From Paracyclopina nana (Eukaryota; Arthropoda; Copepoda; Cyclopoida; Cyclopettidae), in assembly GCA_019096065.1 (NCBI GenBank), contig JAGUCH010000004.1, forward strand, positions 682,001 to 746,000: a stretch of DNA of 64,000 nt, given 5' to 3'. This document shows, piece by piece, positions 31,785 to 35,256 of this stretch. The translations under genes were made by a program, and so were the position numbers. The first letter of the stretch is position 1; each line of letters opens with the position of its first letter. Under the pieces are notes generated by a model. That model ran no database searches. It saw only the letters and a program-made list of their open reading frames with translations, and was not told the origin of the DNA.

Positions 31785-31964
31785 TTTTACCCACGTCGGT
31801 TTGTTTTCCTCCGAACTGAAATCGTGACAATTTTAACGCTCGACTAATTCGCAAAAAAATTGTCAAAAACGCCTTTTAAAACAAAGAAAAAAAAATAACA
31901 TTGTTTGGTAGCTCTGTTTGTTTACAGCTAATTTGTAAACAAAATTTCGCAGAAAATTTTTAAC
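31785..31964. promoter_or_regulatory. Bidirectional promoter region of EXOSC9 and MRPS7
   Basis: The 180 bp between two divergent start codons must hold both 5' UTRs and promoters. No TATA box is evident on either side. Confidence 0.5.
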
Positions 31965-32630
31965 ATGTTTCTGCTCAAGTTATCACCTTGGAGCCGAATG
32001 GCGGCGACGAGGCCCATGTCAATGTGGCCGGGAAACTTTACCGACCCCATTGAACACAAGGATGAAATTAGAGCTGCCAAAGAGAGTGGAGAGTATAAAA
32101 GGAAAACGCTTTTGCCCATCAAAGCTGCGAGCAAAGATGCCAACTGCTCTGTGTTCCTGCCAAAAGAAATGTTAAAGTTCCAGAAAATGATTCTGAAAGA
32201 AGGCAAAGGTTTCGTGGCCTTTGAAGAGCTTCGCCTCACCTTTCAGGCCATCAAAGACATTCAGCTGAAAAAGTACTACAAAGCCAGCGCTGAACGGAGA
32301 GAAAACATCGTCACTGACCCTGCGGAAATCCTACGGATGGCTGTCGAAAACGCAAGGCCTCTAATGGCCATTCAAAAGGTCAAAGTGGGCTCTGTTGTTT
32401 ATTCTGTGCCTGCCCCAATCACGTATGAACGATCTCTCTTCACTGCTCGCCAGTGGATTCTAAATGCAGCTCGTGATCGAGAAAGGGGCAAGTCGAGGCT
32501 TCACACTACCTTGGCTACCATTCTCATTGAGACGGCCAATAACACTGGCAGGGTGATTTCAGTCAGAAATGAGCACCACAAAACATGTGAACAAAATAGA
32601 GCAAATGCTCATTACAGAGTGTCAGCCTAA
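31965..32630 (+). CDS. MRPS7: Mitochondrial ribosomal protein uS7m
   Basis: A single exon of 221 aa. The basic N-terminus (MFLLKLSPWSRMAATRPMSM) is a mitochondrial targeting sequence. The uS7 core shows PAEILRMAVENARPLM, KVGSVVYSVPAPITYERS and ARQWILNAARDR. It binds the 3' major domain of small-subunit rRNA in the mitochondrial ribosome. An AATAAA follows the stop at about 32637. Confidence 0.95.
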   Translation: MFLLKLSPWSRMAATRPMSMWPGNFTDPIEHKDEIRAAKESGEYKRKTLLPIKAASKDANCSVFLPKEMLKFQKMILKEGKGFVAFEELRLTFQAIKDIQLKKYYKASAERRENIVTDPAEILRMAVENARPLMAIQKVKVGSVVYSVPAPITYERSLFTARQWILNAARDRERGKSRLHTTLATILIETANNTGRVISVRNEHHKTCEQNRANAHYRVSA

Positions 32631-32783: not shown

Positions 32784-35256
32784 TCAGGGCTTCACTTCTT
32801 GATTGACAAACGCCATAATGGACTCTTTGGTGCAACCGAAAGCTTTGCCGAAATCCTTAATGATCTCCTCCGCCAATGTGAACTTGTAGCCTTCGATGAT
32901 CTGAGCTCGGTGCTCAGGCTTGAGGGACTTGTTGGCGAGAATGTCATCCAACCGGGGGAACTTGGACCTGGCTGAATTGAAAGCGTCAATCAAATCGGGG
33001 TCAAAATAGCGCTTCTTTCCGTGCGCATTGTACAGCAAAGACTCTTGCAGCACTTTGTTCAGAGGGTCGACAACATCCTTGATTTTGCATTTCTCGGCCA
33101 ATTCCACAAGAGCTTCAACTCGCCTCGGATCGGTGTCTTCACAACCCTTCCATTTCAAAATGATGCCTTGGCTGGGAATGGTAATCACAAAGCCCTCCAC
33201 CTTTTGGCCCACCAGATCCCCGGCCATTTTTGCAAACACTTTGGTCGTTGGCAAGGTCTGCAAAATTGGCACTGTCAGCATGCCAAACCGGTTGAACAAA
33301 TGCTTCAATTCGCCATTGAGCAGAATCACGAAAAAGTCGTTCGCCTGAGCTTCCTCAGAGTGGACTGAAAACCCACGCAAGCCCAGGACTCGGATGACTT
33401 TTTGCACCTCATTGGAAGGCAGGGGTTGATTCAGAGCCAGCCCAAGGCCAAATCCATAAAACTGGCCACTCACCAAGGACCTTGACGCGTAGCCAAACTT
33501 ATCCTCTTTGGAGCTGGCTGTGCCCTTCTGCAGCCATTCCCCGAACACAGTGACGCTGAAATCCAAGTAGGGGAAAATTTGCTTGAACACCACGGCAGGA
33601 ATGTCCCTGACAGCCTTCAAAGGCTGGCCAAGAGATGCCAAGGATTCACCAGCAAATTGGGTGTCAGCAAGCTCTTTGGGGTTTGGGTTCACTAGCAAAA
33701 CTTTCCTTCTTGAACAGACAAGTCCACGTGAGGAAATGCTCAAGTTGGACCCGTCCAACTTCTCAGACACCAAGGCAATTGGGTCAGTACGGGTTAAATC
33801 TGCCATACGATCAGGACACAGGTAGACACTTGGGATTTCAGGCCATTGGTGGGGGCAAATGTCACCAGGTTTATATTTGGAGAAGTTGACTTTTTCAGCT
33901 GCAGTATTGGTGGTGGACTTGTGTATTGGCTTGCCCTTTTTGGTGGGAGGTTTCACAGCTGCGGTCGTAGGAGCAACCGGCGGTTTGGTAAGGACAAAAT
34001 CTGCAAGGTATTTATTTAGTAGCACTTTTAAAAGTACAGCAAGATTCAGGCCCCAGATGTGTATTATGATATTTGTTAGTGGTAAAATTCAACAACAAAA
34101 CTGTTAGCAGTCAAATGTGGGTTATTAAAAAATCTTATTCGATTATCAATATTTTTTGTTGGCAGTAGAGACCCCATCATTATTAACAACCTGTAAAATA
34201 TCAGAATACACACTCTGAATTTCTTTTTAAGCAGGATTTAGCAAAAAATGCTCCTACCTTCCTCAAAGGACTTTTCGCAGCGTTTCATCCATTCTTGGAT
34301 GGATGGCGGCAATTTCGGCCCTCCTTTGGCCTTTTTCATCAGGGAGTAGGCAAACCCGTCTGCAACGGTGAAAAGGCCGCACGCCAAAAACTTGGACTTT
34401 TTCAGGCTTGGCTCAATCATCGCTTTGACCGATTGCGTATAGCTGGCAATGCAAAGTTCATCCAGCAGCGATTCCACGAGAGCAGACTTGATGTCACTGC
34501 TGACCAGGGGATGATTGAACAAGTTGAATCTACGGGCAAAATAGCGCACCAAATTGACCTCTCCTTTCACCACACAAGTTGAGGTGGGCGAAGTGACAAG
34601 CTCCAAATCTTGAGCTACAAAAAAAAAGAAAGATTAAAAAAGGCAATTCAGAGTAAAGTGTGCCATACCAGCTGTCCAAATGAGAGTGATATTCAAGTCA
34701 GCCAAAGTTCTGGAGGAGCAATTTGAGGCAGGCAAAAAGTCGAGCAGAGCATTGGGAATTCCCTTGGGCAAACTCGAGTGGACATGGGAGCAAACAACAA
34801 CCTGAAGACTGCGCTGCAATTGAGCGCAAATCAAAGGCAAAGACAACGGCGCATTAGTAGGTGGGGCACGGATAACAATGTCACGCACACCCTGCAAGAA
34901 TAATTGAAATCAAGTACGGTTGACAGGCCAAGAATAGCGAAAAAGGCACCCACGTGGGTTGAAGAAGGTTCCAATGTTGTCTTCTGCTGCAAGCCATTCA
35001 CTTCCAGCTTGAGAGCTTCCAATTGATTGATAATCTTCTCTTGTCGCTCCTCAAGAGCTTTCAAAGCTTCGTCCTGCAAATAAATTAACGCGCTTGTTAT
35101 GATTGACGATATGGTTTTTAACGTGTTGCCATTTACCGAACTTTCGCTTTGTTGAGTTTCGAATTTTTGGATGCTCGGAAGTTTGTACATACAAGTTGGC
35201 AAGTCGAATTCCATGTTTGGCGGAATGATCGGTGGTAGCCGATACATCGTCGACAT
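32784..35256 (-). CDS. AIMP2: AIMP2 fused to an RNA-ligase-type nucleotidyltransferase domain
   Basis: Five exons (35256-35137, 35073-34954, 34891-34669, 34614-34258, 34000-32784) join in phase to 678 aa. Residues 1-273 are AIMP2: the DLPTCMYKLPS motif, a leucine-zipper helix (EERQEKIINQLEALK), DIVIRAPPTNAPLSL and a GST-C-like domain (FTVADGFAYSLM, IQEWMKRCEKSF). After a Pro/Lys linker (PPVAPTTAAVKPPTKKGKP) comes a covalent nucleotidyltransferase: motif I KLDGSN (lysine near 354), FGEW (near 426), EGFV (near 542) and LKWK (near 556). The last exon has no start codon before the ligase domain, and the AIMP2 exon reaches a GTAGGA donor without a stop, so fusion is the natural reading. AIMP2 scaffolds the multi-tRNA-synthetase complex. 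Intron retention would end plain AIMP2 nine residues later. Confidence 0.88.

What the first reader, a model, noticed from the sequence alone, without database searches (positions are those of the whole stretch)
32784..35256. AIMP2 fused to an RNA-ligase-type domain
The AIMP2 scaffold of the multi-tRNA-synthetase complex reads in phase, through a standard donor (GTAGGA) and acceptor (CTTGCAG), into an exon for a covalent nucleotidyltransferase with motifs KLDGSN, FGEW, EGFV and LKWK all present. The ligase exon has no start codon before its domain and AIMP2 has no stop before the donor. I know of no described AIMP2-ligase fusion. It suggests repair or sealing of cleaved tRNA (or other RNA) at the synthetase complex. 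The motifs and phase are seen; the function is inferred.
Basis: partly seen in the sequence, partly recalled or inferred. Interest (0 to 1): 0.9.

Follow-up and report, generated by a model that had tools for sequence, protein, structure and literature searches.

The report
tRNA-synthetase scaffold fused to RNA ligase
In a copepod-like crustacean, the AIMP2 protein that holds the tRNA-charging enzymes together carries what looks like an RNA-joining enzyme as its tail, which suggests that broken tRNAs are mended where they are charged.

Summary
On the minus strand, 35256-32784, five exons with GT-AG introns give a 678-residue protein: AIMP2 (LysRS-binding motif, thioredoxin-like domain, weak GST tail) followed by an RNA_ligase domain (PF09414, 41.2 bits) with the nucleotidyltransferase motifs.

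It is not one genome's oddity. Eleven database entries, from at least seven lineages, carry both parts, among them NCBI's 'uncharacterized protein AIMP2' isoforms X2 and X6 of the salmon louse. Fused proteins fall in both main branches of the ligase tree, so the fusion is probably old.

New here: in calanoid-type relatives the same AIMP2 body ends, after one shared junction, in a stop, a ProXp-ala tRNA-editing domain or the ligase. AIMP2 looks like a socket for tRNA quality-control enzymes.

Most likely mechanism: an ATP-dependent 5'-3' RNA ligase, distantly like T4 Rnl2, tethered to the multi-tRNA-synthetase complex and resealing broken tRNA. Fusion and motifs are shown; docking, ligation and substrate are inferred. 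No transcript of this species was seen, and structure prediction never ran. The listings of seven paper searches showed no report of either fusion.

The parts
32784..35256 (-). whole coding stretch of the AIMP2-RNA ligase fusion, five exons, 678 aa
   Evidence: spliced translation
35137..35256 (-). exon 1, start codon and LysRS-binding segment
35164..35250 (-). AIMP2_LysRS_bd PF16780 match, the only one found in the genome
34954..35073 (-). exon 2, heptad-like segment LKALEERQEKIINQLEALKLEVNGL
   Evidence: zipper-like nature read by eye, not tested
34669..34891 (-). exon 3, thioredoxin-like domain
34673..34888 (-). Thioredoxin_16 PF18569 match
34258..34614 (-). exon 4, GST-C-like part of AIMP2 (PF00043 12.2 bits, below cut-off)
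34001..34257 (-). intron 4 (phase 1) between AIMP2 and ligase; retained, it gives GRSIFC and a stop
34183..34190 (-). candidate alternative end: acceptor TTTTACAG ending at 34191 would give a stand-alone AIMP2 ending ...FEEGC; AATAAA follows at 34016. Not shown to be used
32784..34000 (-). exon 5: Lys/Pro/Thr-rich linker plus the whole ligase
33147..33770 (-). RNA_ligase PF09414 match
33744..33764 (-). motif I EKLDGSN (Lys354 at 33759-33761)
33705..33713 (-). motif Ia-like SRR
33537..33542 (-). motif III Gly-Glu of FGEW
33447..33452 (-). motif IIIa Phe-Gly
33192..33197 (-). motif IV Glu-Gly of EGFV
33147..33155 (-). motif V KWK

Best explanation
The gene makes one protein in which AIMP2 is joined in frame, through a Lys/Pro/Thr-rich linker, to an ATP-dependent covalent nucleotidyltransferase of the RNA ligase kind. 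AIMP2 is the scaffold that holds LysRS and the two halves of the multi-tRNA-synthetase complex. The AIMP2 half should dock the enzyme on that complex. The ligase half would take AMP on Lys354, pass it to an RNA 5'-phosphate and join that end to a 3'-OH, so that tRNAs cut in the anticodon loop are resealed at or beside the enzymes that recharge them. Ends left as cyclic phosphate and 5'-OH would first need healing by other enzymes. In calanoid-type relatives the same junction instead brings in a ProXp-ala editing domain or a stop, so the AIMP2 C-terminus acts as an exchangeable socket for tRNA quality-control enzymes. Shown: the fused reading frame, its recurrence in relatives, the intact motifs, the alternative tails. 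Inferred: alternative splicing as their cause, docking, ligation, tRNA as substrate.
For: In-frame five-exon gene. Pfam domains of both halves. Eleven database entries with both halves; they are not all independent (P0064/P0065 are isoforms of one salmon louse gene, P0060 to P0062 are nearly alike), but stand for at least seven lineages in the tree. Open frames of 631, 700 and 775 codons on contigs of 1975, 2212 and 2386 bases imply spliced RNA or intronless genes. Fused members in both main branches of the ligase tree. Residues of motifs Ia to V (R371, GE, FG, EG, KWK) and of motif I are unchanged in 61 of 61 rows; motif I was used to pick most rows, so its own invariance is partly circular. 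The only match to the LysRS-binding motif in the genome is here. hhalign puts motifs I, III and IIIa in register with T4 Rnl2 (E 0.008) against 0.11 for this genome's DNA ligase III and 0.24 for an unrelated T4 protein. The same AIMP2 junction carries a ProXp-ala domain in relatives. Precedents, from passages read: RLIG1, a human 5'-3' RNA ligase, seals tRNA-Lys anticodon-loop breaks in vitro (PMC11494293); a YbaK-like protein belongs to the trypanosome synthetase complex (PMC4394549 section 9).
Against: No transcript or protein from this species was seen. I found no activity reported for a member of this ligase family. PF09414 is not specific: this genome's DNA ligase III also passes it (28.9 bits), and some fused relatives fall below its cut-off (P0042 21.4, P0060 19.5; P0059 had no match at E 0.01 or less). 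The T4 Rnl2 match has an hhalign probability of only 5% and covers 96 columns. No solved structure matched the family by sequence. Structure prediction could not be run. In 4 of 11 fused relatives the ligase half is less like the window's than the AIMP2 half is. The genome has RtcB-like and 2'-phosphotransferase-like matches, so ordinary tRNA splicing need not depend on this enzyme. P0031 and P0034 carry the ligase without AIMP2.
Confidence: 0.55

Rival explanations
1. The fused enzyme is a true RNA ligase held on the synthetase complex, but its main substrate is not tRNA: for example cleaved rRNA, mRNA or other RNA, or it acts away from the complex.
For: Human Rlig1 is described as required for 28S rRNA integrity (PMC13244148, abstract in the search listing only). 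No substrate evidence was found for this family.
Against: AIMP2 is the docking protein of tRNA-charging enzymes, and the alternative tail at the same junction is a tRNA-editing domain.
Confidence: 0.25
2. The domain is a covalent nucleotidyltransferase with another job: DNA nick sealing, RNA 5' modification, or adenylylation of something else.
For: PF09414 also matches this genome's DNA ligase III. I found no assay of any member of this family.
Against: No DNA_ligase_A_M or other ligase family matched the window domain at E 1 or less. T4 Rnl2 aligns better than DNA ligase III in profile comparison, though weakly.
Confidence: 0.1
3. Catalysis has been lost and the domain is only a structural or RNA-binding part of AIMP2.
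For: In 4 of 11 fused relatives the ligase half is less like the window's than the AIMP2 half is, and in 1 it is equal.
Against: Motif residues outside motif I (R371, GE, FG, EG, KWK) are unchanged in 61 of 61 rows, whose identity to the window runs from about 27 to 74%. In 6 of 11 fused relatives the ligase half is the more conserved one, e.g. 207 of 356 against 105 of 209 with P0003.
Confidence: 0.05
4. Two separate neighbouring genes: AIMP2 ends in the retained intron (GRSIFC) or at a short alternative exon, and the ligase starts at Met339 from its own promoter.
For: Reading on gives a stop after six codons. An alternative acceptor at 34191 followed by AATAAA at 34016 could end an AIMP2-only mRNA. 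Stand-alone AIMP2 proteins exist in relatives.
Against: Starting at Met339 would drop the conserved HQWPE segment. Eleven database entries carry both halves in one open frame, three of them on contigs that leave no room for introns. An AIMP2-only form can exist beside the fusion.
Confidence: 0.03

Closest known systems
AIMP2 (p38), scaffold of the metazoan multi-aminoacyl-tRNA synthetase complex
   Same: LysRS-binding N-terminal motif and thioredoxin-like domain, with a weak GST-like tail; only canonical copy found in the genome
   Different: Carries a ligase domain; AIMPs are generally considered non-enzyme factors with a scaffolding role (abstract of PMC7382500 as shown in the listing)
Rnl2-type RNA ligases (T4 Rnl2, trypanosome editing ligases; Pfam PF09414)
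   Same: Motifs I to V in order; PF09414 above its cut-off; motifs I, III and IIIa align with T4 Rnl2. That trypanosome editing ligases are of this type: PMC3400036, passage
   Different: Distant: hhalign probability only 5%, no solved-structure sequence match; fused to a synthetase scaffold; about 120 C-terminal residues lie outside the Pfam match
RLIG1 (C12orf29), animal 5'-3' RNA ligase
   Same: An animal 5'-3' RNA ligase that can seal tRNA-Lys anticodon-loop breaks in vitro (PMC11494293, passages)
   Different: Different family: the window domain did not match PF17720 at E 1 or less; the passages read do not describe RLIG1 as fused to a synthetase-complex part
ProXp-ala / PRORSD1 trans-editing enzyme fused to AIMP2 in relatives of this gene
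   Same: Same AIMP2 body and same junction, another tRNA-acting enzyme as tail
   Different: A deacylase domain, not a ligase; no match found in the window's genome
Trypanosoma brucei synthetase complex with MCP3 (YbaK-like)
   Same: A relative of a tRNA-editing enzyme held in a synthetase complex (PMC4394549 section 9)
   Different: Separate subunit, not fused; editing, not ligation
Branchiostoma floridae RNL
   Same: An animal 5'-3' RNA ligase (PMC3400036, passages)
   Different: Stand-alone; described there as weakly similar to yeast and plant ligases; not compared here

Membership tests
AIMP2 | N-terminal LysRS-binding motif (PF16780) | tested here: met
   32.1 bits, cut-off 27; single match in the genome
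AIMP2 | thioredoxin-like domain (PF18569) | tested here: met
   62.9 bits, cut-off 26.5
AIMP2 | C-terminal GST-like domain | tested here: inconclusive
   GST_C 12.2 bits, cut-off 20.7; in the relative P0069 solved AIMP2 chains align over residues 96-280, not tried for the window protein
AIMP2 | assembly with LysRS and the other synthetases | not testable with these tools
   needs co-purification
RNA_ligase PF09414 (Rnl2-type) | profile score above the curated cut-off | tested here: met
   41.2 bits, cut-off 27; caution: DNA ligase III of the same genome scores 28.9
RNA_ligase PF09414 (Rnl2-type) | nucleotidyltransferase motifs I, Ia, III, IIIa, IV, V in order (motif names recalled) | tested here: met
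   present in the window and across 61 aligned rows
RNA_ligase PF09414 (Rnl2-type) | resemblance to T4 Rnl2 itself over the whole length | tested here: inconclusive
   hhalign E 0.008, 96 columns of the N-terminal part only, probability 5%
RNA_ligase PF09414 (Rnl2-type) | seals 3'-OH/5'-P RNA with ATP | not testable with these tools
   needs a bench assay
ATP-dependent DNA ligase | DNA_ligase_A_M domain (PF01068) | tested here: not met
   no match at E 1 or less, whereas the genome's DNA ligase III gives 202 bits
RLIG1 | RLIG1 profile (PF17720) | tested here: not met
   no match at E 1 or less

The most novel reading that the evidence does not exclude
In copepods the AIMP2 gene is a splice-controlled socket. 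One scaffold body ends as plain AIMP2, as AIMP2 with a ProXp-ala editing domain, or as AIMP2 with an RNA ligase, turning the tRNA-charging complex into a tRNA proofreading and repair station. The lineage of this window has kept only the ligase tail, and its complex reseals tRNAs cut in the anticodon loop, perhaps first those served by the docked LysRS, and recharges them on the spot.
Probability: 0.4. Interest if true: 0.92.

Novelty: new variant of a known kind. Interest (0 to 1): 0.82.

Why it matters
AIMP2 is treated as a non-enzymatic scaffold. Here it carries what looks like a catalytic RNA-repair domain, and in relatives a tRNA-editing domain, at one exchangeable position. That would make the multi-synthetase complex a place of tRNA repair as well as charging. 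It offers a gene-level handle on what the complex is for and on whether animals mend cleaved tRNA by 5'-3' ligation, a kind of activity reported in human nuclear lysates over 30 years ago (passage of PMC11494293). The salmon louse gene model shows that the fusion already lies in public annotation under the name 'uncharacterized protein AIMP2'.

Tried and rejected
Separate genes: rejected on the relatives' single open frames and on the missing start codon before the conserved HQWPE. DNA ligase: disfavoured. Phage, viral or prokaryotic source of the ligase: none confirmed in IMG/VR, GTDB genome contigs or phage records; see only places that match two short patterns exactly, so they do not show absence. 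PHROG 548 'RNA ligase' matched weakly, E 0.00036. The source is open: stand-alone members (P0015, P0043, P0049, P0052, P0054) form their own branch when taken as outgroup and bear no organism names. A second AIMP2 making the fusion dispensable: the genome's other Thioredoxin_16 match lacks the LysRS motif and is very divergent. Loss of RLIG1: not decidable, because the control rang nowhere. A PRORSD1 exon in this genome: none by profile or by protein; both search exon by exon and could miss small exons. The species could not be named: no COX1 match in the assembly and nothing decisive in the paper search.

Papers: ten searches. Seven bear on the fusions; what I saw are listings with abstract beginnings: 3 of 3 papers, 20 of 1451, 2 of 3, 4 of 4, 10 of 13, 15 of 116, 10 of 10. 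None of these listings shows an AIMP2-ligase or AIMP2-ProXp-ala fusion. The library is open-licence PubMed Central only. Passages were read in PMC4394549 (section 9 whole), PMC11494293, PMC3400036 and PMC6105596; of PMC7382500, PMC9425024 and PMC13244148 only the abstract beginnings in listings. First-pass ideas that I dropped: I took the plus-strand neighbour at 31932-32630 for another mitochondrial ribosomal protein until Pfam showed Ribosomal_S7; I took the hydrophobic start of the L005 paralogue for a membrane anchor and now regard it as possibly intronic sequence.

Full report
What is there. The finding lies on the minus strand. Five exons (35256-35137, 35073-34954, 34891-34669, 34614-34258, 34000-32784) with GT-AG introns give a 678-residue protein with the junction in codon 274, phase 1. 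The boundaries were set by hand; for the exon 2 donor three cuts were tried and the one that keeps frame and GT was taken. Pfam finds the AIMP2 LysRS-binding motif (32.1 bits), Thioredoxin_16 (62.9 bits), a GST_C trace below its cut-off (12.2 bits), and RNA_ligase PF09414 (41.2 bits) in exon 5. The first in-frame Met of exon 5 is residue 339. HQWPE at 324-328 lies before it; its Trp and Pro are the same in the 51 of 61 rows that have letters there. So the complete ligase can only be made through the fusion. The window is bases 682001-746000 of contig C4 (9.7 Mb) in a 92 Mb assembly of 10 contigs. The gene stands between host genes: an RNase PH family gene and a Ribosomal_S7 gene on one side, a bromodomain/DUF3512 gene on the other.

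Copy number. PF09414 matches three places in the genome: this gene and two copies, 98.3% identical, of a DNA ligase III-like gene. PF16780 matches once, here. PF18569 matches twice: here and in a divergent AIMP2-like frame at the end of the PheRS alpha gene. The fused gene is thus the only canonical AIMP2 found; these searches go exon by exon.

Relatives. A search with residues 250-678 found 15 proteins among 7999 scored candidates; a profile of ten ligases found 58; a profile of four fused proteins found 49. Of those 49, 7 join AIMP2 and ligase, 18 join AIMP2 and the tRNA_edit domain PF04073, 7 are AIMP2 alone, 16 are ligase frames without AIMP2 (many may be single exons of genomic contigs), and 1 has PF04073 alone. 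Over the three searches, 11 entries carry both AIMP2 and ligase sequence: P0002 (part of AIMP2), P0003, P0008, P0009, P0042, P0059 to P0062, P0064, P0065. They are not 11 independent cases: P0064 and P0065 are isoforms of one gene, P0060 to P0062 are nearly alike, and P0008 and P0009 are close; I count at least seven lineages in the tree. For P0042 and P0059 to P0062 the precomputed Pfam list shows only AIMP2 domains, and for P0002 and P0008 only the ligase; the other half is seen by alignment. PF09414 scores below its cut-off in P0042 and P0060 and gives no match at E 0.01 or less in P0059. P0064 and P0065 are NCBI models named 'uncharacterized protein AIMP2 isoform X2 / X6 [Lepeophtheirus salmonis]'. 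P0003, P0009 and P0059 have 631, 700 and 775 codons on contigs of 1975, 2212 and 2386 bases, so they come from spliced RNA or intronless genes. Identity of the window to the 11 runs from 79 of 267 (30%) to 105 of 209 (50%) in the AIMP2 part and from 103 of 347 (30%) to 208 of 354 (59%) in the ligase part; the ligase part is the more conserved in 6 of 11, equal in 1, less in 4.

Age. In a careful tree of 47 of the 61 ligase rows (14 close relatives left out by hand), rooted on five distant rows that I chose, fused proteins occur in both main branches: with the window (17 rows with the salmon louse, support 88/84) and in the other branch (25 rows, 100/99). The salmon louse row is on a long branch and its place is unsure. 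Two long proteins of the second branch, P0031 and P0034, carry the ligase behind a low-complexity stretch without AIMP2, so separation or another start also occurs. In the AIMP2 tree (34 rows; P0002, P0065, P0084 and P0091 not entered) the window groups with P0003, P0008 and P0009 (SH-aLRT 99), which are also among its nearer kin in the ligase tree.

Alternative tails. P0068 and P0069, whose names carry the accession GFUD of the Neocalanus flemingeri transcriptome (identified in a passage of PMC6105596), are identical over 350 residues and then end (KSE) or go on into PF04073 (KSGKEN...). P0042 (ligase) and P0063 (PF04073) are 98.7% identical over 298 residues up to the same point. P0066/P0067 and P0079/P0080 repeat the stop/PF04073 pair at 99.4% and 99.7%. 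The other 7 of 11 pairs that I compared are 44.9-74.4% identical, as for different species or alternative exons. The first residue after the junction is Gly, Glu or Asp, as a phase-1 intron after a G would give, and the window's junction is phase 1 with Asp. The PF04073 domain of P0069 is a PRORSD1/ProXp-ala relative (PDB 8huz, E 1.3e-38); known ProXp-ala hydrolyses mischarged Ala-tRNA-Pro (abstract of PMC9425024 in the listing). In the branch of the AIMP2 tree that holds these proteins the three kinds lie mixed at the tips; the window's own branch holds ligase forms only. Alternative splicing of one gene is the simplest reading, but no genomic DNA of those species was seen, and P0042/P0063 could be alleles or near species. 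The window genome shows no PF04073 match. Its intron 4 holds a candidate acceptor at 34191 that would give a stand-alone AIMP2, and an AATAAA at 34016; use of either is unproven.

Enzyme. Across 61 rows (the window and 60 of the 92 fetched proteins), Lys354, Asp356, Gly357, Ser358, Asn359, Arg371, Gly427, Glu428, Phe457, Gly458, Glu542, Gly543, Lys556, Trp557 and Lys558 do not vary. Rows were selected by motif I except P0017 and P0019, so only the motifs after it are an independent test; proteins without the motif and fragments were left out. The family is distant from everything solved: no PDB sequence match for the single protein at E 1 or less, and none convincing for the profile (best E 0.28, a CutA-like protein; an ATP-dependent DNA ligase at 0.29). 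hhalign places motifs I, III and IIIa on T4 Rnl2 with E 0.008 and a probability of 5%, against 0.11 for DNA ligase III and 0.24 for an unrelated T4 protein. This supports an RNA-ligase-like active site but is weak taken alone. PF09414 also matches DNA ligase III at 28.9 bits, yet that protein gives 202 bits to PF01068 and the window domain gives no match to it at E 1 or less.

Mechanism. AIMP2 holds LysRS by its N-terminus and joins the two halves of the complex (PMC4394549, passages). A ligase at its C-terminus would sit beside the charging enzymes. Human RLIG1 shows that a 5'-3' ligase can reseal tRNA-Lys broken in the anticodon loop when the ends are 5'-P and 3'-OH; ends with a 3'-phosphate would need changing first (PMC11494293, passages). 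The genome also has RtcB-like and Tpt1-like matches, so tRNA splicing probably has its usual enzyme and this one is more likely a repair enzyme. The trypanosome complex holds a YbaK-like protein (PMC4394549 section 9), a precedent for quality-control enzymes in such complexes. The fused frame, its recurrence, the motifs and the alternative tails are shown; docking, ligation and tRNA as substrate are inferred.

Organism. The named nearest relatives are copepods (Lepeophtheirus, Neocalanus), so I take the window for a copepod or close kin. This is inference; that Neocalanus is a calanoid is recalled.

Verdict. None of the listings of the seven relevant paper searches shows a report of either AIMP2 fusion; two of those listings were cut far short (20 of 1451, 15 of 116), and subscription papers and preprints were not covered.

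Noticed in passing
G000:C4 about 1335370 (L005:1180-2076): An AIMP2-like frame (Thioredoxin_16, 55.9 bits) starts inside the last exon of the PheRS alpha gene, in another frame; the LysRS motif was not found there. Its hydrophobic N-terminus may be intronic sequence. An overlapping or two-cistron arrangement of two synthetase-complex genes deserves a look.
   Followed up: partly
L002 (G000:C7:209285-212800) and L003 (G000:C2:6577610-6581125): Two copies of a DNA ligase III-like gene on different contigs, 98.3% identical over 3363 bases, so a recent duplication or transposition.
   Followed up: partly
P0031 and P0034: Relatives of the ligase with about 240 residues of low-complexity sequence in front and no AIMP2: either a secondary split or another transcript start of the fused gene.
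   Followed up: no
P0015, P0043, P0049, P0052, P0054: Stand-alone distant relatives, no names given; they may hold the origin of the animal ligase.
   Followed up: partly
G000 whole genome: No PF04073 (ProXp-ala) match by profile or protein: possible loss of this editing enzyme in a lineage whose relatives hang it on AIMP2.
   Followed up: partly
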